Assembly (NCBI RefSeq): GCF_036059255.1
Contig: NZ_CP107947.1
Location: forward strand, 1,674,001 to 1,738,000
Direction: 5' to 3'
DNA from: Micromonospora sp. NBC_00389
GTDB taxonomy: Bacteria; Actinomycetota; Actinomycetes; Mycobacteriales; Micromonosporaceae
DNA length: 64,000 nucleotides
Positions 21,925-44,050 of the stretch are shown here, piece by piece (position 1 is the stretch's first letter; each line of letters opens with the position of its first letter). The notes beneath the pieces are model-generated. The model ran no database searches, was not told the DNA's origin, and saw only the letters and a list, made by a program, of their open reading frames with translations. A program made the position numbers and the translations under genes.

Positions 21925-24394
<2,470 letters not shown>

Positions 24395-35690: not shown

Positions 35691-36335
35691 TCACCGCGCC
35701 GGTGTCCGGCTCACCGGCGCGGTCGTCGACACCGACGGCCCGGAACGGCGGTGCCGGCCGAGCCAGCGGACCACCTCGACGACCAGGGTCACCGTCAGCG
35801 CGAGACCCAGACCGAGCAGCAGGCCGCGCAGCGGATCCTGCTCGAAGGCCATCCCGCCGAGGTAGCCGACCAGCGCCGAGTAGAGCCCCCACGAGCCCGC
35901 GGCGAGCGCGTCGAAGGCCAGGAAGCGTCGACGGGGATAGTGGATCGCCCCCATGGTGAGGGTGACCGCGGTCCGGCCGCCCGGCACGTAGCGGGCAACG
36001 GTGAGGATCAGACCGCCCCGGGCGGCGATTCCCCGGCGGGCACGCTCGACGGCGGCCCGGCGCCGGCCGTCGGGCGGAAGCCGGTCGAGCAGCCGGGTGC
36101 CACCACCCCGGCCGATGGCGTACGAGATGTGGTCCCCGACCAGCGCGCCGACGGCGGCCACCAGGATCACCGCGGGCAGGTACGGCGCGCCGGAGGCCGC
36201 GAACACCCCCGCGGTGATCACCGCTGTCTCGCTCGGCACCACCGGGAAGAAACCGTCGAGCACCGCGATCGTGAAGATCGCCAGGTACACCCACGGTGAG
36301 GACATCGTCTGATGTAGCAGGTCGAGCAGATCCAT
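35691..36335 (-). CDS. DedA-family membrane protein (second of three)
   Basis: A 214-residue DedA protein: WVYLAIFTIAVLDGFFPVVPSETAVI, GALVGDHISYAIGRGGG, the conserved arginine segment LILTVARYVPGGRTAVTLTMG, and YPRRRFLAFDALAAGSW. The ATG at 36335 aligns with the start of its paralogue at 38329-38958; a start at 36371 would add 12 residues. The sequences of the two are closely related, and they flank a two-component system, which suggests a local duplication. Probably an undecaprenyl-phosphate-type lipid transporter. Confidence 0.88.
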   Translation of the reverse strand: MDLLDLLHQTMSSPWVYLAIFTIAVLDGFFPVVPSETAVITAGVFAASGAPYLPAVILVAAVGALVGDHISYAIGRGGGTRLLDRLPPDGRRRAAVERARRGIAARGGLILTVARYVPGGRTAVTLTMGAIHYPRRRFLAFDALAAGSWGLYSALVGYLGGMAFEQDPLRGLLLGLGLALTVTLVVEVVRWLGRHRRSGPSVSTTAPVSRTPAR

Positions 36336-36505
36336 GATCTCGATGCTGGTGCCGGCGACGGCTCCCGCCATCGGCCAGTGGTCAGCCGGGCGACATCACT
36401 TAGGTAGCGTCCGGCCCGGACGGCGGGTAGGGGTCTTCCCCCACCGCACCCGGGTCTGTCGGGCGCGGGCGGCCCGACCCGCCGGTGGAGCCCTACGCTC
36501 GCTGC

Positions 36506-37657
36506 ATGGCCTCCAGCGCCGTCGTGCTCCGGCGGGTCGTCGACCGGTACGCCTCGCTGCTGCTCGCCGTCGTGGTCGCCGCCGCTGTCTGGGCCAGTGC
36601 GACCGGCGCGATCGGGGTCCGCTCGCCGCTGCCGCCCGTCGTCGTGCTGCTCGTCGCCGTGGCCTCCGGTTGGGCCGCTGGCCTGGTCCGGGCCCGCCGC
36701 TGGCCGCTGTTCCTGGCCGCCGCGATCGGCTGGTTGGTGCTCGCTGCCGCGGCACCCGGGGTGGTCGCCTCGTACCAGGCGGGCCTGCGGCTGCGCGGCC
36801 GGCGGCTCACCGGGTTCCTCGTCGGGGCCGCCCTGGTGCTGGCCGGTGGGGTGCTGGTCGGGCTGGCGGTGGGCGGCGTGCGCCGGCTCACCACCGCCAC
36901 CTTCGGCAACGTGCTGCTGCTCGCCGCCTGTCTGGTCGGATTTCCCCTGGTCGTCGGCCTCTGGGTGCGGGCGCGCCGGGACACGCTCGCCGCGCTACGG
37001 GACCGGGCCGAACGCCTGGAACGCGAGCAGGAGGCCCGTGCCGACCGGGTTCGCGCCGAGGAACGGACCCGGATCGCCCGGGAGATGCACGACGTGGTGG
37101 CGCACCAGGTGTCGCTGATGGTGGTGCACGCCGGCGCACTGGAGGTGACCGCCGCCGACCCGGCGACCGTCGAGGCCGCCGCGCTGATCCGCGAGACCGG
37201 CCGGCAGGCGCTCACCGACCTGCGCGAGGTGCTGGGCGTGCTGCGGCAGGCCGGTCCGGCCACGGTGCCGGAGCGCGGGCTAGACGCCATCGATGAGCTG
37301 ATCGGGGAGTCCCGCTCCGCCGGGCTCCGGGTCCGGCGACGGGACGAGGGCGTGCCGTCGGCGCTGCCGGCGACCGTGGGACGCACCGCGTACCGGGTGG
37401 TTCGGGAGGCGCTGACCAACGTGCGCAAGCACGCCGCCGAGGCCGAGACGACGGTCTGCCTTCGCTACCTGCCCGACGGGCTGGAGGTGGTGGTAAGCAA
37501 CGGCCCGTCCGAGGGCGGGCAACCCCTGCCCGGTGCCGGGCAGGGGTTGCTCGGGCTGCGCGAGCGGGTGGAACTGCTCGGCGGTCGGCTGGAGGCGGCG
37601 CCCGTCGACGCCGGGTTCCTGGTCCGGGCACTGATCCCGGTGGTGGATGCGGCGTGA
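36506..37657 (+). CDS. Sensor histidine kinase (NarL-type, HisKA_3)
   Basis: A 383-residue membrane sensor with four to five hydrophobic helices in the first 150 residues, then a coiled-coil (RDRAERLEREQEARADRVRAEE). The dimerisation/phosphoacceptor motif RTRIAREMHDVVAHQVSLMVVHAG contains the His. The HATPase part has YRVVREALTNVRKHA and GAGQGLLGLRERVELLGGRL. It phosphorylates the LuxR-type regulator encoded next, with which it overlaps by 4 bases. The sensing part lies in the membrane with no large external domain, typical of cell-envelope sensors. An in-frame GTG at 36485 is an alternative start. Confidence 0.9.
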   Translation: MASSAVVLRRVVDRYASLLLAVVVAAAVWASATGAIGVRSPLPPVVVLLVAVASGWAAGLVRARRWPLFLAAAIGWLVLAAAAPGVVASYQAGLRLRGRRLTGFLVGAALVLAGGVLVGLAVGGVRRLTTATFGNVLLLAACLVGFPLVVGLWVRARRDTLAALRDRAERLEREQEARADRVRAEERTRIAREMHDVVAHQVSLMVVHAGALEVTAADPATVEAAALIRETGRQALTDLREVLGVLRQAGPATVPERGLDAIDELIGESRSAGLRVRRRDEGVPSALPATVGRTAYRVVREALTNVRKHAAEAETTVCLRYLPDGLEVVVSNGPSEGGQPLPGAGQGLLGLRERVELLGGRLEAAPVDAGFLVRALIPVVDAA

Positions 37658-38295
37658 TCCGGGTGGTGGTGGTTGACGACGAGCAACTCGTCCGCGCCGG
37701 GCTGCGACTCATCCTGGAGGCGGCGGAGGACATCACGGTGGTGGGCGAGGCCGCGGACGGCGCTGGCGCGCTGGAGCAGGCCCACCGGTTACGCCCCGAC
37801 GTCGTGCTGCTCGACGTGCGGATGCCGGGCATCGACGGGCTGACCGTCGCGCCCGAGGTGGTCGCCGCCGGACCGAAGGTGATCATGCTGACCACCTTCG
37901 ACCTCGACGAGTACGTGCACCGCGCGCTGCGGGCCGGAGCGGTGGGTTTCCTGCTCAAGGACACCCCGCCCCGCGAGCTCGCCGCCGCCGTCCGCACGGT
38001 GGCCGCCGGGAACGCGATGCTCGCCCCGACGGTGACCCGGCGCCTGATCAGCTCGTTCGCCGAGCGTGGTCCGGCCCGTCGGGACGCGGCGCGCCAGCGA
38101 CTCGCCCCGCTCACCGCGCGTGAGCTGGAGATCGTCCGGGAGGTGGCGCGCGGGCACGGCAACGCGGAGATCGCCAGGCGGCTGACGATGAGCGAGGCCA
38201 CCGTGAAGGCGCACGTCAGTCGGGCCCTGGCGAAGCTCCAGGCGGGCAACCGGGTGCAGTTGGCGATCCTGGTGCACGACGCTGACCTGCTGTGA
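37654..38295 (+). CDS. LuxR/NarL-family response regulator
   Basis: A 213-residue regulator. The receiver domain has VVVDDEQLVRAGLRLIL (acidic pocket), VVLLDVRMPGIDG with the phosphorylatable Asp, MLTTFDLDEYV and FLLKDTPP (conserved Lys). The LuxR HTH at the C-terminus is LTARELEIVREVARGHGNAEIARRLTMSEATVKAHVSRALAKL. It overlaps the sensor kinase gene (GTGA), forming a strict pair. It is flanked by two dedA genes pointing the opposite way, so envelope lipid genes may be among its targets (inference). Confidence 0.93.
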   Translation: MIRVVVVDDEQLVRAGLRLILEAAEDITVVGEAADGAGALEQAHRLRPDVVLLDVRMPGIDGLTVAPEVVAAGPKVIMLTTFDLDEYVHRALRAGAVGFLLKDTPPRELAAAVRTVAAGNAMLAPTVTRRLISSFAERGPARRDAARQRLAPLTARELEIVREVARGHGNAEIARRLTMSEATVKAHVSRALAKLQAGNRVQLAILVHDADLL

Positions 38296-38328
38296 GGGTG
38301 GCAGCCCAGTCCAGTCCAGCCTGGCCGG

Positions 38329-38958
38329 TCAGTAGCGGGCGGCGGCGCGGCGGTGCGCCCGGCGACGCAGCCAACGGACGCCCTCGATGCCCAGCGTGAC
38401 GATCACCGAGAGGCCGATCCCGGCGAGGATGCCCTTGATGGGGTGGCGCTCGAAGGCCAGCCCACCGAAGTAGCCGAGCAACCCGCAGTAGAGCGCCCAG
38501 GTGGTCGTCGCGATGCCGTCGTAGAGCAGGAAGGACCGGCGTGGGTAGCGCACCGCGCCCATGGTGAGGGTGACCGCCGTCCGGCCGCCCGGCAGGTACC
38601 GGGAGGTGGTCAGGATCAGCCCGCCGCGCCGGTCCACCGCGCGTCGGGCCCACTCGGAGCTGGCCCGCCGGCGGCTGCCGTGGGGAAATCGGGCGAGCCG
38701 GTTCGCGCCGCCGCCGCGCCCGATGGCGTACGAGATGTGGTCGCCGATCAGCGCGCCGAGCGCGGCGGTGGCGATCACCGCGACCAGGTTGGGATGAGCT
38801 CCATCGGCGGCGAACACCGCCGCGGTGATCACCGCCGCCTCGCCCGGTACCGCGGGGAAGAACGCGTCGACCGCGGTGAGTCCGAAGATCAGCAGGTACA
38901 CCCACGGTGAGGTGACCAGCTGTCGGAGCAGGTCGAGCAGGGCTTCCATGCCCCCCAT
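38329..38958 (-). CDS. DedA-family membrane protein (third of three)
   Basis: A 209-residue DedA protein closely similar to that at 35691-36335: WVYLLIFGLTAVDAFFPAVPGEAAVI, GALIGDHISYAIGRGGG, LILTTSRYLPGGRTAVTLTMG and YPRRSFLLYDGIATTTW. The conserved glycine and arginine motifs are intact. It is convergent with the response regulator (33-base gap), and its stop is the first base after that short gap. Confidence 0.88.
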   Translation of the reverse strand: MGGMEALLDLLRQLVTSPWVYLLIFGLTAVDAFFPAVPGEAAVITAAVFAADGAHPNLVAVIATAALGALIGDHISYAIGRGGGANRLARFPHGSRRRASSEWARRAVDRRGGLILTTSRYLPGGRTAVTLTMGAVRYPRRSFLLYDGIATTTWALYCGLLGYFGGLAFERHPIKGILAGIGLSVIVTLGIEGVRWLRRRAHRRAAARY

Positions 38959-39028
38959 GCTCGCCGGGCGCGACCTGCCCGGTGGCCGAGTCGCCGGATC
39001 ACCCGACTCCGGCCGCAGGCGTCAGGCG

Positions 39029-40291
39029 TCAGGCCGAGCGGACCAGGGCCGGCGGGGCGAGCAGCGGGCCGTGCGGGGTCTTGTCGCTGGCGGTGGGGCC
39101 GTGCGAGGTCAGCACCACCGGCGTGTTCAGCTCCGCGCACACCGCCTCCGCCCAGTCGGGCGGCGGGTCGTCGTACAGCGGGCGGGAGCGCAGCAGGCGG
39201 GCGGTGAGCGCGGCCTGCCGGTCCAGGTCGCCGGGCGGGCCCGGGGTGAGCCGGTCGGTGGTGTCGTAGCGGCGGCAGATCCGCAGCCCGGGGCCGGTGA
39301 GGTCGAGGTGGGTCAGCGCCAGGCCGTCGACCCCGCCGGCCGCGGCGAGGGCGTACCGGTGGGCGACCGCGTCGAAGTGGCCGAACCGGAACCGGCCCTG
39401 CCAAGGGTTCGTCGGGTTGTGTGGGTCGGCCAGTGGCAGGTCCGGGTCCTCGGTCACCAGCGGACCGGCCCCGTGCCGGGTGGTGACCAGCCGCAGCACC
39501 CCGATCCGGGTCGCGCCGTCGGGCAGACCCGCCTCGGCGAGCAGGCTGTCGGCGTTGGCGAACGTGGTGGTGCTCCAGGTGGTGTACGGGTGGAAGCCGT
39601 GCCACTCGTCGAGCAGCACGCCCTGCGCGCCCTCGAAGACGCAGGTCCCGGCGCGCAGCGCCCCGGCGAGCCAGCTCCGCTCGACGATCGCGACCCGCCC
39701 GGCGAACCCGGTGAACGCGGGCAGGCAGTCCTCGACCGGTGGCGCGTCCAGCGGGCCGAGTTCGGCGGTCAGTCGGTCCCGCAGGGCGGTCAGCCTGCGG
39801 CGCAGCAGCGCCGGGCTGTGGCAGTCGACGACCCGGGGTGCGTCGTCGGGGTGGGCGAGACCGTACGCGACGGCCTCGCCCACCCCCAGCCCGCAGGAGC
39901 CGTGCCGGTCGGCTCCCCGGGCGATCTCCCGGGCCCGGTTGGCGGCCCGGTGGTACGGGGTGGCGAGCAGCGCCTCTCCGTCGACGGTCAGCCGGTCGAG
40001 CGCGTCGGGCACCCCGACCGTGGCGAGATGGTCGGCCTCGGCGGCCAGCGCCAGCGGGTCCACCACCACGTGCCGCGACAGGTGCGTACGGACCCCGGGA
40101 TGGAACGTGCCGGCGCCGAATTGCGCGAACGTGTGGTGCCGCCCATCGCGCAGCACGACGTTGTGCGCCGCCTGCGCGCCCCCGTTGAAGCGGACCACCG
40201 TGTGCACGGGGCGGGTGGCGCAGAGCCAGTCCACCACTGTGCCCTTGCCGGCGTCGCCGTAGCCGAGGTCGACCACCGCCACGTGCCTCAC
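39029..40291 (-). CDS. Divergent adenylosuccinate-synthetase paralogue (PurA-like ligase)
   Basis: A 420-residue PurA-family protein. The GTP loop is DLGYGDAGKGT, keeping the catalytic Asp at position 13; the catalytic His is in GGAQAAHN (residue 43); EGAQGVLLD (220-228) and TRHGAGP (271-277) are recognisable. The IMP-binding loop (TGRGIGPAY in the canonical enzyme) is replaced by GSCGLGVGEAVAY, and the aspartate loop ([12 protein letters not shown]) by NPWQGRFRFGHFD. The fold and GTP-driven ligation are therefore likely, but the nucleotide or amino acid is probably different. GTG start overlapping the vWA gene by 4 bases; last gene of a four-gene operon. The real purA is at 23105-24394. Confidence 0.85.
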   Translation of the reverse strand: MRHVAVVDLGYGDAGKGTVVDWLCATRPVHTVVRFNGGAQAAHNVVLRDGRHHTFAQFGAGTFHPGVRTHLSRHVVVDPLALAAEADHLATVGVPDALDRLTVDGEALLATPYHRAANRAREIARGADRHGSCGLGVGEAVAYGLAHPDDAPRVVDCHSPALLRRRLTALRDRLTAELGPLDAPPVEDCLPAFTGFAGRVAIVERSWLAGALRAGTCVFEGAQGVLLDEWHGFHPYTTWSTTTFANADSLLAEAGLPDGATRIGVLRLVTTRHGAGPLVTEDPDLPLADPHNPTNPWQGRFRFGHFDAVAHRYALAAAGGVDGLALTHLDLTGPGLRICRRYDTTDRLTPGPPGDLDRQAALTARLLRSRPLYDDPPPDWAEAVCAELNTPVVLTSHGPTASDKTPHGPLLAPPALVRSA

Positions 40292-41247
40292 AGCCTGGTC
40301 ACCTCACCGCCGGTGTCGCGGAAGGCCGGCAGCGTCGACACCTCGGCCCGCCGCCCCCGGCCGAGGCGGGCCAGCGCCTTCGACACGGTGCCGGTGGTGC
40401 CAGAGCCGGTGCGGTCCAGGTGGCGCAGGCCCTCGTCCAGGTCGATGGCCTGCTCACCGAGGCCGATGGTGAGCGCGATGGTCTCGCAGACCGCGTCGAG
40501 GTCGTCGAGCACGACGGCGTTCTGCCCGAGCAGGTCCCGCCAGAAGTCGAGCACCTTGGCGTTGCCGGCGTAGTGGCTGCCGGCGGGGAGCAGGTAGTAG
40601 GTGTCCCAGCGGCGGGTCACCTCGTCGACGACCTGCCGCAGCGGTACGTCCTCGGTCAGGTCGTCGCCGATCAGGCCGGCCACTTCCCGGGCCTTCGCCT
40701 GCGGGTACGCCAGCTCGTCGCCGATGATGAACAGGTAGCCGCGCCGGCCGCGCTTCTCCCAGCTGTCGGTGACGGTGTGCCGGGCCATGAAGTACATGGC
40801 CAGCTCGTACGACTCGCTCATCTGCCCGCCGCCACCGCCCTCCAGGACGATCCGGCCGAGGTCGTCGTCCATCCGGTTGTCCGACTCGAACTGGCCGACC
40901 TGCAACGGCACCCGGTCGCAGGTGGCGTCGCCGATCGCACCGAACATGATCTGCGGGTCGCTGGCGTAGCCCTGCCGTTGCAGCAGCCCGAGCAGCTGCG
41001 GCAGCTTGGTCTGCAGGACGCGCGGCACCTTGCGCATCGAGCCGGTCACGTCGAACAGCACCGCGATGGGCGTCGACCGGGGGTGCTCGTCGGAGTCGCG
41101 GCTCTCGCGCGTCGCGTCCCGGGGGTCGAGCGTGGGGTGCACGGTGCGCGCCCCACTGTCGCTGTAGGAGAACGCGCTGCGGCCGGTGGAGCGCCGGTAG
41201 CGGTCGGCGGCGTCGTACACGTCGGTGGACCAGATTCCACTGCCCAT
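40288..41247 (-). CDS. vWA-domain protein with intact MIDAS
   Basis: A 319-residue soluble protein. After about 60 residues rich in charge (TDVYDAADRYRRSTGRSAFSYSDSGAR) comes a von Willebrand A fold: PIAVLFDVTGSMRKVP with the MIDAS motif D66-x-T68-x-S70, then MFGAIGDATCDRVPLQVGQFESD, LEGGGGGQMSESYELAMYF, and GYLFIIGDELAYPQ. A C-terminal region contains GLGEQAIDLDEGLRHL. MIDAS-bearing vWA proteins mediate metal-dependent protein-protein contacts and often pair with AAA+ or kinase partners. AAGGAG lies 7 bases before the ATG and overlaps the kinase-homologue stop, so the genes are translated in sequence. Confidence 0.85.
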   Translation of the reverse strand: MGSGIWSTDVYDAADRYRRSTGRSAFSYSDSGARTVHPTLDPRDATRESRDSDEHPRSTPIAVLFDVTGSMRKVPRVLQTKLPQLLGLLQRQGYASDPQIMFGAIGDATCDRVPLQVGQFESDNRMDDDLGRIVLEGGGGGQMSESYELAMYFMARHTVTDSWEKRGRRGYLFIIGDELAYPQAKAREVAGLIGDDLTEDVPLRQVVDEVTRRWDTYYLLPAGSHYAGNAKVLDFWRDLLGQNAVVLDDLDAVCETIALTIGLGEQAIDLDEGLRHLDRTGSGTTGTVSKALARLGRGRRAEVSTLPAFRDTGGEVTRL

Positions 41248-41256
41248 GACAGCTCC

Positions 41257-42228
41257 TTACGGGGTGAGGGTGAAGGGTCGGAAGGTGCGTGGCCCGTAGA
41301 GCCGGTCCAGCACCTGGTCGAGTTCGCGCAGCAGGCGCCAGGCGTCGTCGGGCCGGGCGTCCAGGGACCGTTGCCGGCAGCCATGGGCGAAGTTGAGCAG
41401 CTCGCGCGGCGCCTGGCGGTTCATCAGCGAGGTCATGCAGCGGCTGGCCATCGCAATGTCGGTGCCCGGCCCGCAGGGCAGCTTCTTGAGGACCTCGGGC
41501 GGGTACCAGTCCTCCTGGCCGGGCACCAGCGCCGGGATCGTGCTCCCGACGGGGGCGGAGAAGCACCAGTCGATCAGCACCACGCCGTGGGCGTCCGGCT
41601 CGATCAGCACGTGTCGCGGCAGGACCGCACCGTGCACCACGCCCGCCCGGTGGGCCAGGCCGAGCACCACCAGCAGCCGCCGCCACATCCAGGCCACGTC
41701 CCGGGCGTCCAACCCGTCGGGGTACGCGCGCCGCACCTCGTCGAGGTCGTGCAGGCCGGGCGCGGTGGCGAGCACGTTGATCCGCCGCTCGGCGCCGGTC
41801 GCCACGTCCCGGTGCCGGAAGTCGTCGACCAGCCGGGGCACGTACGGCAGGTAGCGCGGGTCGCCGCGCTCCGCGATGGTGCGCAGGGCGTGCGCCTCGC
41901 GGGCCATCAGGTCGTTGTCGGTGGGCCGTCGGGGGAGCTTGAGCAGCCGGTCGTCGCCGACGTCGTAGAGATCGGCCAGGTCGCCCGAGTGGACCGGCGG
42001 GCCGAGGCGATAGTCACCGAGGACGGTGACCTGCCGGGCCTGCCACCGCGTGGTGACGTGGATGAACGCCTCGGTGGCCTCGGCGCGTACCGCCGGGTCG
42101 GTCGGCAGACGGTCGGGATGCAGGGCCGCGACCAGTTCCCGGTAACGCCGGGCCGGCTGGTCCGCGCCGAACAGGTCGGCGTCGGTGCGGGCCGCCGTGA
42201 CCAGGCGGATGGCCGCCGCGGTCCTCAT
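41257..42228 (-). CDS. J-domain/protein-kinase homologue lacking the HRD aspartate (probable pseudokinase)
   Basis: A 323-residue protein. Residues about 15-60 look like a J-domain, with RRYRELVAALHPDRL containing the HPD tripeptide (37-39). Residues 70-280 follow the protein-kinase plan: DDRLLKLPRR with the ATP-site Lys97, MAREAHAL with the alpha-C Glu111, VVHGAVLPRHVLI at the catalytic loop (199-206, where HRDxKxxN would stand), VLIDWCFSA with Asp220 at the DFG position, and TDIAMASRCM. In the catalytic loop the Asp, Lys and Asn are replaced by Ala, Leu and His, so phosphotransfer is unlikely in the usual way. It overlaps the Nudix gene by 4 bases. Confidence 0.75.
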   Translation of the reverse strand: MRTAAAIRLVTAARTDADLFGADQPARRYRELVAALHPDRLPTDPAVRAEATEAFIHVTTRWQARQVTVLGDYRLGPPVHSGDLADLYDVGDDRLLKLPRRPTDNDLMAREAHALRTIAERGDPRYLPYVPRLVDDFRHRDVATGAERRINVLATAPGLHDLDEVRRAYPDGLDARDVAWMWRRLLVVLGLAHRAGVVHGAVLPRHVLIEPDAHGVVLIDWCFSAPVGSTIPALVPGQEDWYPPEVLKKLPCGPGTDIAMASRCMTSLMNRQAPRELLNFAHGCRQRSLDARPDDAWRLLRELDQVLDRLYGPRTFRPFTLTP

Positions 42229-42980
42229 CGCACCGTCTCCTCGCGGGCGGGGCGTAGCAGCGCCGGGTGCAGCAGCCGGGCGTCGCCAGCGCGGTAGAGC
42301 CGGGCGCGGGGGCCGCCCCGGGCGCCGCCGCGCTCGGTGCTGGCGCCTGTGCTCTCCACGAAGCCCGGCACGGAGAGCACCTTGCGGTGGAAGTTGCCGG
42401 CGTGCAGCGGGTGACCCCAGACCGTCTCGTAGACGGCGCGCAGCTCGCTGATCGTGAACTCGGCGGCGAGGAAGCGCGTGGCGAGCGGGGTGTATTCCAG
42501 CTTGGACCGGGCTCGCTCCAGCGCGTCGTCGATGATCCGGCCGTGGTCGAAGGCGAGCTGCCGACTGGTCAGCGCGGTCAACGGCAGCCAGATCGCGTCG
42601 TCGGCGTCGGTGCCGGCGGCCGGGTCCGGCAGGTCGGGGGCGAACGCGAGGTGCGCGACCGAGACGACGCGCATCCGCGGGTCGCGGTCGGGGGTGCCGT
42701 AGCTGCCCAACTGCTCCAGGTGTACGCGGCGCAACCCTTCGCCGCCGAGCCCGGTCTCCTCGGCCAGCTCCCGTCGGGCGCCAGCGGTCAGGTCCTCGTC
42801 GGGGCGGACGAAGCCGCCGGGCAGCGCCCAGTGCCCCTCGAAGGGTGGCTGGCCGCGCCGGATCAGCAGCAGGTGCAGTGCGTCGTCGCGAATGGTCAGC
42901 GCCACCACGTCAACGGTCACGGCGACCGACGGGTAGGCCCCGGGGTCGTACGCGGCCAGGAAGTCCTGCTCGTCAACCAT
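42225..42980 (-). CDS. Nudix hydrolase with C-terminal NrtR-like winged helix
   Basis: A 251-residue protein. Residues 18-150 form a Nudix domain whose box G-x5-E-x7-REL-x-EE-x-G-L (residues 56-78, GGFVRPDEDLTAGARREL then AEETGL) is complete, so hydrolase activity is possible. Residues about 160-235 match the wHTH of NrtR regulators (EFTISELRAVYETVWGHPLHAGNFHRKVL, then a GGPRARLYR end). NrtR proteins sense ADP-ribose or NAD-related metabolites and repress target operons. It is the first gene of the operon with two tandem palindromes just before its ATG, so autoregulation is likely. Whether the Nudix site cleaves or only binds its ligand is open. Confidence 0.85.
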   Translation of the reverse strand: MVDEQDFLAAYDPGAYPSVAVTVDVVALTIRDDALHLLLIRRGQPPFEGHWALPGGFVRPDEDLTAGARRELAEETGLGGEGLRRVHLEQLGSYGTPDRDPRMRVVSVAHLAFAPDLPDPAAGTDADDAIWLPLTALTSRQLAFDHGRIIDDALERARSKLEYTPLATRFLAAEFTISELRAVYETVWGHPLHAGNFHRKVLSVPGFVESTGASTERGGARGGPRARLYRAGDARLLHPALLRPAREETVR

Positions 42981-42985
42981 GTCTC

Positions 42986-43014
42986 TCTCAATCTGAGAAC
43001 ATCTCGATCTGAGA
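42986..43014 (-). promoter_or_regulatory. Tandem operator pair before the Nudix operon
   Basis: TCTCA-ATC-TGAGA (42986-42998) and TCTCG-ATC-TGAGA (43002-43014) are 13-bp palindromes repeated with a 16-bp period. They end only 5 bases before the Nudix ATG at 42980. The spacing and position fit a repressor that blocks transcription of the operon, most simply the NrtR-like first gene product. Confidence 0.7.
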
Positions 43015-43036
43015 AGAACTTAGCGCATGAGAGCAA

Positions 43037-43067
43037 CCCTGCCAATCCCGAATCCGGGTCGGCAGGG
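43037..43067 (-). terminator. Terminator after the htdX-like gene
   Basis: CCCTGCC pairs with GGCAGGG, and an inner CCCG-AAT-CCGGG stem forms within the loop. The structure lies 6 bases past the stop of the htdX-like gene, between it and the Nudix operon promoter. Confidence 0.6.
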
Positions 43068-43072
43068 GTGTC

Positions 43073-44050
43073 TCAGTGCAAGAGACCCGCCAGGTGCGGC
43101 CGGCCGCGCGAGTCGTGCAGGGCGAACCCACCGTCCGGCAGGAGGGCGAAGCTCACCGTGCTCGGCAGCGGTACGGGCAGCTTGAAGGCGACCTCGACGG
43201 TGTAGGCGTCCGGCAGCCGGCTCTCCAGCGCGGCCAGGCAGCGCGCCTTGCTCCACATGCCGTGCGCGATCGGCCGCCGGAAGCCGAACAGCCGCGCCCC
43301 GAGTCGGGACGTGTGGATCGGATTGTGGTCCCCGGACACCCGCGCATACTGCGTGCCGACGCGGGGTTCCACCCGCCAGTGGGCTGTGGCGGCCGGCGCC
43401 TCGGGGCGCCCGCTCCCGTCGCGCCGCTCACCGCCGCCGGGCTTGCGCTCCCGACCGAGGTACGTCGAGACGCCGCGCCAGACCTCCTCCCCGTCGACCG
43501 AGCCGACCAGCACCACGTCCACCTGCCGCCCCCGGTCGTGCGGGCGCAGGTTCTCCGCGTACGTCGTGAAGTCGAGGGTCTCGTCGGCGGTGATCGGGCG
43601 GCGCACGGTGATCCGGTTACCGACGTGCACCACGCCGGTCAGCGGGATGGGGAACTCTGGCGCGGTCATCAGTCGCAGGGTCAGCGGGAAGCCCATGACG
43701 TGCGGAAACGTAGCGGGCAGCCGGTCGGTGAGCCGGAACCCGCAGACCCGGTCGTAGTCGGCCAGGTGCGCCCGGTCGACGGTCACCCCGCGCGCGGCCA
43801 ACTCGACCGCCGGCAGGCCGGGCCCGCGCCGCCCTCCGCCGAGGCCCGGCAGCGCACCGAGCAACGCCCGCCGGTAGAGCGCCCCGGCCGCCGGCATCCG
43901 GGGCAGCTCGACCGGGGTACGGCCGCCCGCGTCCGGCAAGCGTGCCGCGGCCCGGGTCTCCGCCGACAGCCTCTCCGTCGGGCCGTCGATCAGCTCGTGC
44001 AGGGACACGTCGTCCGGCCCGTCCGCCGGCTCCCGCCGCGCGCCGCCCAT
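43073..44050 (-). CDS. MaoC-like 3-hydroxyacyl-thioester dehydratase (HtdX-like)
   Basis: A 325-residue protein with two hot-dog halves. The C-terminal half has the MaoC hydratase motif YARVSGDHNPIHTSRLGARLFGFRRPIAHGMWSKA, with the catalytic Asp and His. The N-terminal half (LPATFPHVMGFPLTLRLM, HVGNRITVRRPI) is the second, degenerate hot-dog. It should dehydrate 3-hydroxyacyl-thioesters. It follows fabG4 with a one-base overlap (TGATG). This order and the divergent thiolase equal the mycobacterial htdX (Rv0241c)-fabG4 (Rv0242c)/fadA2 (Rv0243) region. Confidence 0.9.
   Translation of the reverse strand: MGGARREPADGPDDVSLHELIDGPTERLSAETRAAARLPDAGGRTPVELPRMPAAGALYRRALLGALPGLGGGRRGPGLPAVELAARGVTVDRAHLADYDRVCGFRLTDRLPATFPHVMGFPLTLRLMTAPEFPIPLTGVVHVGNRITVRRPITADETLDFTTYAENLRPHDRGRQVDVVLVGSVDGEEVWRGVSTYLGRERKPGGGERRDGSGRPEAPAATAHWRVEPRVGTQYARVSGDHNPIHTSRLGARLFGFRRPIAHGMWSKARCLAALESRLPDAYTVEVAFKLPVPLPSTVSFALLPDGGFALHDSRGRPHLAGLLH

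What the first reader, a model, noticed from the sequence alone, without database searches (positions are those of the whole stretch)
39029..42980. Four-gene operon combining a Nudix/NrtR regulator, a J-domain pseudokinase, a vWA protein and a PurA paralogue
Four genes lie on one strand with overlaps of 4 bases (Nudix/kinase homologue and vWA/PurA-like) and a 9-base gap in the middle, so they make one co-translated unit. The proteins are a metabolite-sensing Nudix/NrtR-like regulator, a J-domain fused to a kinase fold without the HRD Asp, a MIDAS vWA protein, and a ligase of the adenylosuccinate-synthetase family with altered substrate loops. The neighbours (dedA, htdX) are unrelated. I know of no described pathway with this set. 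A working idea is a nucleotide-signalling or nucleotide-modification system in which the ligase makes an unusual amino-acid/nucleotide conjugate, the Nudix protein senses or removes it, and the vWA/J-pseudokinase pair is a protein-handling module. That idea is inference.
Basis: partly seen in the sequence, partly recalled or inferred. Interest (0 to 1): 0.85.

Follow-up and report, generated by a model that had tools for sequence, protein, structure and literature searches.

The report
Undescribed PurA-like/vWA operon shared with phages
A four-gene bacterial operon with no described function that I could find is one form of a module also seen on plasmids and in large phages, whose central enzyme looks like a purine-synthesis enzyme rebuilt for a different substrate.

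Summary
In detail: four same-strand genes at 39029-42980, a Nudix/NrtR-type regulator (NUD), a J-domain pseudokinase (JK), a vWA/MIDAS protein (VWA) and a PurA paralogue (PAL). All four occur in this order in 75 of the 80 bacterial loci examined. VWA and PAL occur in exactly the same genomes in two overlapping samples (22 of 101; 20 of 246). JK-VWA-PAL, or VWA-PAL alone, also lies on plasmids of actinobacteria and proteobacteria and in phages (VWA near PAL in 77 of 80 viral contigs; 190 mycobacteriophage records for each gene).

The core is VWA+PAL. JK is a replaceable partner. NUD is a sensor-regulator of the cellular forms, with tandem 16-bp operators on its own promoter. PAL is a separate PurA clade: catalytic Asp13/His41/Gln224 kept, aspartate-binding loop and 5'-phosphate pocket changed, so neither adenylosuccinate synthase nor PurZ. 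In phages it tends to lie near NAD-salvage genes (9 of 14 records that have NAPRTase; controls 1 of 14 and 0 of 9).

Best guess: a GTP-dependent purine-6 ligase using a non-aspartate amine and a substrate altered at the 5' end, possibly NAD-related. Substrate not shown. Ten literature searches found no description.

The parts
42225..42980 (-). NUD: NrtR-type regulator, Nudix domain plus C-terminal winged helix, Nudix box intact
   Evidence: Pfam NUDIX 76 bits and NrtR_WHD 45 bits; NCBIfam NtrR 134 bits, far under its cut-off of 400
41257..42228 (-). JK: J domain (HPD) fused to a pseudokinase (HRD Asp replaced by Ala; beta-3 Lys and DW- motif kept)
40288..41247 (-). VWA: vWA/beta-I fold protein with MIDAS DVTGS; core component
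   Evidence: PHROG phrog_2971 (unknown function) by its Acetobacter relative
39029..40291 (-). PAL: PurA-family paralogue with rebuilt aspartate and 5'-phosphate sites; core component
   Evidence: PF00709 194 bits; residue table on 99 PAL sequences; separate clade 99/91
43017..43045 (-). Putative promoter TTGGCA-N17-TAAGTT
   Evidence: general TTGnCA-N15-19-TAnnnT in 21 of 78 upstream regions, window included
42986..43015 (-). Two tandem 16-bp-spaced operator palindromes TTCTCAnnnnGAGA (43002-43015 and 42986-42999) just downstream of the -10 box
   Evidence: 48 of 78 upstream regions by a loose rule, 0 in 100 shuffles; the pair is unique in own genome

Best explanation
The operon is a cellular, self-regulated form of a mobile VWA-PAL module. 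Shown by comparison: VWA and PAL go together in nearly all loci looked at closely; JK is a frequent, replaceable third part; a Nudix/winged-helix regulator accompanies the cellular forms in three arrangements, here with tandem operators on its own promoter. Inferred: PAL uses GTP to phosphorylate the 6-oxo group of a purine (Asp13, His41, Gln224 and P-loop kept) and then joins an amine other than aspartate, on a nucleotide whose 5' end is not a simple monophosphate (N38, T129, R143' changed). VWA holds or presents PAL's partner through its MIDAS metal, and JK docks Hsp70 (DnaK) through its HPD. The Nudix domain of NUD binds a nucleoside-diphosphate-type compound made or consumed by the pathway and releases the operators. 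Closeness to NAD-salvage genes in phages and the NrtR-type regulator make an NAD/ADP-ribose-like substrate the first candidate.
For: Co-inheritance: VWA and PAL in the same 22 of 101 and the same 20 of 246 genomes (the samples overlap); 77 of 80 viral contigs; distance-matrix correlation r 0.76 over 91 loci, 0.66 for the 75 viral ones, permuted maximum 0.08. PAL residues: D13, H41, K16, Q224 in 99 of 99; N38 to Q 97, T129 to C 90, V273 to H 99, T301 to Q 98 of 99; Asp loop one residue shorter, R303 gapped in 99 of 99. R303 contacts IMP O2' and aspartate (PMC8342488, section 8 read). Operators. Regulator beside plasmid-borne modules. NAD context: NAPRTase within 8 kb of PAL in 9 of 14 phage records that have one (expected 1.5), PF01467 6 of 12 (expected 1.9), against ribonucleotide reductase 1 of 14 and thymidylate synthase 0 of 9.
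Against: No substrate, product or activity is shown. The Asp-loop alignment is ambiguous by a residue or two, so one binding Arg may be kept. The NAD link was noticed first and tested after on the same contigs, phages are not independent, 28 of 42 records have no NAPRTase match, and no NAD gene lies in the bacterial operon. The roles of N38, T129, R143' and T239 are recalled, not retrieved. A NUD ligand is assumed from the NrtR family; the operator scan shows no other place with the same paired operator, so no NAD gene under it. The vWA and J parts do not by themselves suggest metabolite synthesis.
Confidence: 0.42

Rival explanations
1. A protein-handling machine: PAL is a GTP-driven switch rather than a ligase, VWA captures a client peptide by its MIDAS, and JK (or, in phages, a Met-rich protein) brings Hsp70 or the client, to assemble or mature a protein complex.
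For: J domain HPD invariant in 18 of 18 aligned JK; MIDAS in 78 of 78 VWA; Met-rich partner families stand upstream of VWA in 33 of 53 viral loci without a JK match; vWA proteins act as co-chaperones of MoxR ATPases (PMC7159879, passages).
Against: PAL keeps the residues for 6-oxo phosphorylation (D13, H41, Q224 in 99 of 99), which a mere switch would not need. The conserved unit holds no AAA+ gene. J domain missing in L024, L025, L032, L043 and JK missing in L033, L046.
Confidence: 0.2
2. An NAD-centred conflict module: it makes or repairs an NAD/ADP-ribose derivative that protects phages or cells against NAD-depleting defence, in the manner of phage NAD reconstitution pathways.
For: NAPRTase and NMNAT-like genes close to PAL in phages; NrtR-type regulator; sparse, patchy distribution in bacteria and presence on plasmids and phages.
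Against: No PADLOC hit to PAL or VWA; NAPRTase found in only 14 of 42 phage records; no NAD gene in the bacterial operon; the Micromonospora copies lie 8-18 kb from purA in 8 genomes of the genus and look resident.
Confidence: 0.18
3. A PurZ-like enzyme making a modified deoxynucleotide for phage DNA, secondarily taken up by bacteria.
For: Wide phage distribution; PHROG names it '2-aminooxy adenylosuccinate synthetase'; like phiVC8 PurZ it has Ser128 and a gap at R303, the residue that contacts IMP O2' in PurA.
Against: phiVC8 PurZ has Ser for Asp13, PAL has Asp in 99 of 99, and PurZ keeps N38, T129 and V273; PAL is a separate clade (99/91); no dATPase or MazG-type or polymerase-I family among the ten widely shared viral neighbour families scanned, one member each.
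Confidence: 0.1
4. A plain second adenylosuccinate synthase (dosage or inhibitor-resistant copy) in a chance operon.
For: PF00709 194 bits and conserved catalytic residues; canonical purA lies about 15 kb away.
Against: NCBIfam purA models far below cut-off (149 of 402; 113 of 396 bits); aspartate loop rebuilt in 99 of 99; strict VWA partnership; a PurA match other than PAL was found in all 101 genomes of the order sample.
Confidence: 0.03

Closest known systems
Adenylosuccinate synthetase PurA (E. coli, EC 6.3.4.4)
   Same: Fold family PF00709; P-loop, Asp13, His41, Gln224, Thr239 conserved
   Different: Aspartate loop (ATTGRRRR in E. coli) replaced by a shorter (W/F/Y/H)QG..R loop, Val273 to His, Asn38 to Gln, Thr129 to Cys; vWA partner; separate clade
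PurZ/PurZ0 (2-aminoadenine phages)
   Same: PurA-family paralogue in phages; the same product name in some records; phiVC8 PurZ shares Ser128 and the gap at R303
   Different: PurZ has Ser at the Asp13 position and works with DatZ/MazZ- or DutZ/DmtZ-type enzymes (PMC12884076, passages); PAL keeps Asp, has His273 and works with VWA
NrtR regulators (M. smegmatis MSMEG_3198; BtAraR seen in a search listing only)
   Same: Nudix domain plus winged helix; autoregulation predicted
   Different: The paired operator occurs only at its own operon; tandem 16-bp TTCTCAnnnnGAGA sites instead of the 23-bp GTTTTCGA-N7-TCGAAAAC palindrome (PMC6800001, passages); intact Nudix box in type I
MoxR-vWA ternary systems (PMC7159879, passages)
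   Same: vWA protein in a conserved multi-gene unit
   Different: No MoxR gene in the conserved unit; PurA-like enzyme instead
Phage NAD reconstitution pathway NARP1 and NAMPT/NMNAT salvage sets (PMC12774641, PMC7824862, passages)
   Same: Genes of these kinds lie near VWA-PAL in some phages
   Different: PAL and VWA are not named in the passages I saw of either paper as parts of these pathways
Mokosh MkoA (PADLOC)
   Same: Weak similarity of JK, E 8e-9
   Different: MkoA is a 1112-position model of which only positions 9-258 match, and JK lacks the HRD Asp

Membership tests
Adenylosuccinate synthetase (PurA) | PF00709 above gathering score | tested here: met
   193.9 bits against 27
Adenylosuccinate synthetase (PurA) | Equivalog score (NCBIfam PRK01117 402; TIGR00184 396) | tested here: not met
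   149.4 and 113.2 bits
Adenylosuccinate synthetase (PurA) | Catalytic Asp13 and His41 | tested here: met
   99 of 99 PAL
Adenylosuccinate synthetase (PurA) | Aspartate loop with Thr300/301, Arg303, Arg305 | tested here: not met
   T301 to Q 98 of 99, R303 gapped 99 of 99, R305 column Leu/Phe/Ile/Met/Trp in 98; alignment ambiguous by a residue or two
PurZ | Ser in place of catalytic Asp | tested here: not met
   phiVC8 PurZ Ser, PAL Asp 99 of 99; the general rule for phage PurZ is from PMC12884076 (passages)
PurZ | Groups with PurZ in a tree | tested here: inconclusive
   PAL is its own clade 99/91, but the one PurZ row has an end branch of about 6 changes per column
NrtR regulator | Nudix plus NrtR winged helix | tested here: met
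   76.1 and 45 bits, both over cut-off
NrtR regulator | NCBIfam NtrR equivalog cut-off 400 | tested here: not met
   133.7 bits
NrtR regulator | Controls NAD synthesis genes | tested here: inconclusive
   paired operator found only at this operon in own genome; single sites not scanned
J-domain protein | HPD motif and J fold | tested here: met
   HPD in 18 of 18 of A7 and 70 of 76 loci; missing in L024, L025, L032, L043, and in L028, L062 whose starts are uncertain
Active Ser/Thr protein kinase | HRD catalytic Asp | tested here: not met
   Ala in 76 of 76 (68 by pattern, 8 by inspection)
vWA domain | MIDAS D-x-[ST]-G-S and vWA fold | tested here: met
MoxR-vWA ternary system | MoxR AAA+ gene in the conserved unit | tested here: not met
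   the conserved unit is NUD-JK-VWA-PAL; no further family shared by five or more of 22 genus groups; no domain search for AAA+ in single neighbourhoods was made
Ter stress system | TerD/TerC/TelA neighbours | not tested
   no dedicated search made
Known anti-phage defence system | PADLOC model match for core parts | tested here: not met
   none for VWA or PAL at E<=1; only weak kinase and Nudix hits for JK and NUD

The most novel reading that the evidence does not exclude
VWA-PAL makes a so far unknown N6-substituted purine dinucleotide (an NAD- or ADP-ribose-type molecule with its 6-position joined to a non-aspartate amine), used both by large phages and by bacteria as a protected cofactor or signal, with NUD sensing it in the cellular forms.
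Probability: 0.12. Interest if true: 0.93.

Novelty: categorically new. Interest (0 to 1): 0.76.

Why it matters
A two-protein core found in 77 of 80 viral contigs examined, in a whole subcluster of well-studied mycobacteriophages, on plasmids and in a minority of actinobacterial genomes has no function that I could find described. Its enzyme is a further branch of the PurA family beside PurA and PurZ, with a sharp residue signature that allows direct assays. It may reveal a new purine-derived metabolite and a new tie between phages and NAD metabolism, and it puts in doubt the current phage label '2-aminooxy adenylosuccinate synthetase' for these proteins.

Tried and rejected
Plain PurA copy and PurZ: rejected on residues, model scores and clade. 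Chance operon: rejected on co-occurrence. Nudix as core enzyme: weakened by the degenerate box in type II and in the Acetobacter and Rhizobium relatives and by no winged-helix match in 80 viral loci. Rfam scan of 38500-43500: nothing. Profile search of solved structures with VWA gave no meaningful hit. NCBI source names for VWA were mostly 'hypothetical protein', with 'VWA domain-containing' from some. In VIA-align the first 55 residues of VWA were barely tested.

Literature: 10 searches in an open-licence PMC library found no description of the set; subscription papers are not covered. Seen as passages only: PMC6800001, PMC7159879, PMC12599244, PMC9476963, PMC12884076, PMC7824862, PMC8504454, PMC12774641; passages and sections 7 and 8 of PMC8342488. 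Other listed papers were seen as search listings only.

Weak points: many loci are close kin (Micromonospora); some gene starts are mis-set (L023, L024, L028, L031, L045, L057, L074 show large false overlaps). The counts of 325 bacterial and 526 viral relatives may include other PurA-family proteins; only the best 80 of each were examined. L110 and L120 were dropped as duplicates from the residue table and the distance correlation (not from the 77, 27, 17, 16, 12 and 11 of 80), where loci without VWA or with VWA under 200 bits, and the interrupted C1 VWA, were also left out; in the tree every third viral row was kept; the NAD and control scans used 42 records: 40 of the 80 viral loci (the long contigs, L120 standing for L119) plus L097 and L098, with coordinates copied by hand into. 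Shuffles keep base content only. Operators were not looked for in type II or proteobacterial forms.
Full report
OBSERVATION. The window lies in a 7.87-Mb genome; its closest relatives by PAL are Micromonospora species at 90-95% identity. The true PurA is another gene, 23117-24364 on the plus strand, so PAL is a second, divergent PurA-family protein.

CO-INHERITANCE IN BACTERIA. Of these 80, 75 hold all four genes in the order NUD-JK-VWA-PAL on one strand. Of the five others, L014, L054 and L066 are cut by contig ends, while in L033 and L046 NUD is present and no JK was found. The 80 span Micromonospora, Virgisporangium, Asanoa, Dactylosporangium, Catellatospora, Actinomadura, Thermomonospora, Streptosporangium, Allonocardiopsis, Embleya, Streptacidiphilus, Wenjunlia and Streptomyces. 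In a sample of 101 genomes of the order, PAL (over 160 bits; other PurA matches stay under 139) is in 22 and VWA in the same 22; one further genome, G084, has only a 77-residue PAL piece. In 246 genomes of the class, PAL (E<=1e-44) is in 20 and VWA in the same 20, though in G223 only part of VWA matched. The two samples overlap. Among 39 loci in 22 genus groups no further family was shared by five or more groups; the wide matches listed were other-frame readings of the four genes or of the downstream Nudix gene of type II.

THREE CELLULAR FORMS. Type I is the window's form. On plasmids of Acetobacter persici and Rhizobium leguminosarum a gene with an NrtR winged helix (54.6 and 69.2 bits) stands divergently just upstream of JK; in the Acetobacter frame the start of the Nudix domain is missing. 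None was found in the Variovorax and Methylorubrum stretches. The Nudix box is intact or nearly so in type I (57 of 77 by a strict pattern, the other 20 with an inserted stretch or a few changed residues) and degenerate in the 6 type II proteins aligned and in the two proteobacterial ones. The winged helix of type II is weak in Pfam (16 and 14 bits for the two plasmids, none for L088 and L095). A sensor kept, with catalysis optional, fits best.

REGULATION. Upstream of NUD lies TTGGCA-N17-TAAGTT (43045-43017) followed at once by two palindromes TTCTCAGATCGAGA and TTCTCAGATTGAGA, 16 bp apart (43015-42986). Arrays of this kind stand at the same place in many type I loci: 48 of 78 by a loose rule, window included, 0 in 100 shuffles. 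In the whole genome the exact pair occurs only here; the two other places have 3 mismatches, and the reversed control also gives one match. This is the picture of a dedicated autorepressor. Repression itself is inferred.

PHAGES AND PLASMIDS. At E<=1e-5 PAL matches 226 phage records (some of them other PurA-family proteins at about 25-31% identity); VWA matches 208 at E<=0.01 and JK 191 at E<=0.1. Each of the three counts holds 189 Mycobacterium and 1 Mycolicibacterium phage records; that they are the same records was not checked one by one. Pinkcreek shows kinase-VWA-small ORF-PAL at the right end of the genome, and its announcement lists the kinase and PurA-like genes among those conserved in and unique to subcluster C1 (PMC9476963, passage). 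In many of these phages the VWA match is in two pieces, and some records name an HNH endonuclease there. Rhizobium (10) and Vibrio (6) phages are in the PAL and VWA counts but not in the JK count; the two looked at, one of each, have VWA and PAL side by side. Plasmids of Rhodococcus, Tsukamurella, Acetobacter, Variovorax and Rhizobium carry JK-VWA-PAL; in the Methylorubrum stretch only VWA-PAL was found. In 33 of the 53 loci without a JK match, a Met-rich protein of one of two families lies upstream of VWA; one member of each was scanned, with no Pfam or PHROG match. No locus of the 80 had both JK and one of these. This looks like a partner swap.

THE ENZYME. In 99 PAL sequences (21 bacterial, plasmid and named phage, 78 viral) Asp13, Lys16, His41 and Gln224 are invariant, and Thr239 is kept in 98. 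Changed: Asn38 to Gln (97), Thr128 to Ser (98), Thr129 to Cys (90), Val273 to His (99), Thr301 to Gln (98); the aspartate loop is one residue shorter, with Arg303 gapped in 99 and one Arg kept near 306 in 97. The gap place is ambiguous by a residue or two. Asp333, which reads guanine (recalled), is kept in 79; 20 have Asn. PMC8342488 (section 8) states that R303 contacts IMP O2' and the aspartate substrate. That Asn38, Thr129, Thr239 and Arg143' hold the 5'-phosphate of IMP is recalled. Read together: base chemistry kept, amine site and 5' end changed. PurZ of phiVC8 has Ser for Asp13 and keeps Asn38, Thr129 and Val273; it does share Ser128 and the gap at R303 with PAL. PAL is one clade apart from PurA and PurZ, 99/91, though PurZ's own branch is very long and only three PurA rows were used.

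NAD CONTEXT. While listing viral neighbours I saw a family linked by BLAST in 12 of 80 loci whose scanned member is a NAPRTase/NAMPT, and one in 11 whose scanned member is an NMNAT-Nudix fusion. A test on 42 whole phage records followed: NAPRTase occurs in 14 and lies within 8 kb of PAL in 9 (expected 1.5 at random places; 0 of 200,000 draws reach 9); PF01467 in 12, near in 6 (expected 1.9, P 0.005); controls: ribonucleotide reductase 1 of 14, thymidylate synthase 0 of 9. This is after-the-fact, on phages that share ancestry, and 28 of the 42 records have no NAPRTase match. The Rhizobium and Vibrio phages have no NAPRTase match either.

MECHANISM AND VERDICT. The unit, its core, its regulator and the altered active site are well supported. 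What PAL makes is not known; the ligase reading is favoured over a GTP-switch machine because the catalytic residues are kept. A NAD- or ADP-ribose-like substrate is the first candidate, from two hints: the NrtR-type regulator in cells and NAD-salvage neighbours in phages. Each protein fold is known and phage annotators have named single parts (kinase; PurA-like; phrog_1211, phrog_2971 and phrog_3043), but I found no description of the system in 10 searches of an open library. I rate it categorically new as a system, with a moderate-confidence mechanism.

Noticed in passing
window 23117-24364 and 39029-40291: The canonical purA lies about 15 kb from the PAL operon, and in seven other genomes of the genus the two are also about 8-18 kb apart.
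   Followed up: no
window 35691-38958: Two DedA-like genes (35691-36371, 38329-38958) flank what reads as a two-component pair (36485-37657, 37654-38295); naming is from reading the translations only.
   Followed up: no
L116:6278-7063, L105:6691-7086: Two phage families of Met-rich proteins upstream of VWA, without Pfam or PHROG match for the member scanned, in 17 and 16 of 80 loci, never together with JK.
   Followed up: partly
L024, L025, L032, L043; L033, L046: Natural variants: JK without a J domain, and operons with NUD and VWA but no JK.
   Followed up: partly
L102:5141-5797 (-), L103:4989-5774 (-): Divergent NrtR-type genes with degenerate Nudix part upstream of JK on proteobacterial plasmids, a third arrangement of the regulator.
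   Followed up: partly
L096:6888-8711: The VWA gene of C1 mycobacteriophages has its homology split by an extra stretch in many phages; some records name an HNH endonuclease there.
   Followed up: no
L068:4249-5127: A second NUD-like gene on the opposite strand next to a type I operon in a Streptosporangiaceae MAG.
   Followed up: no
PHROG phrog_1211: The product name '2-aminooxy adenylosuccinate synthetase' is given to PAL proteins in some phage records and also to phiVC8 PurZ; for PAL it is probably misleading.
   Followed up: partly
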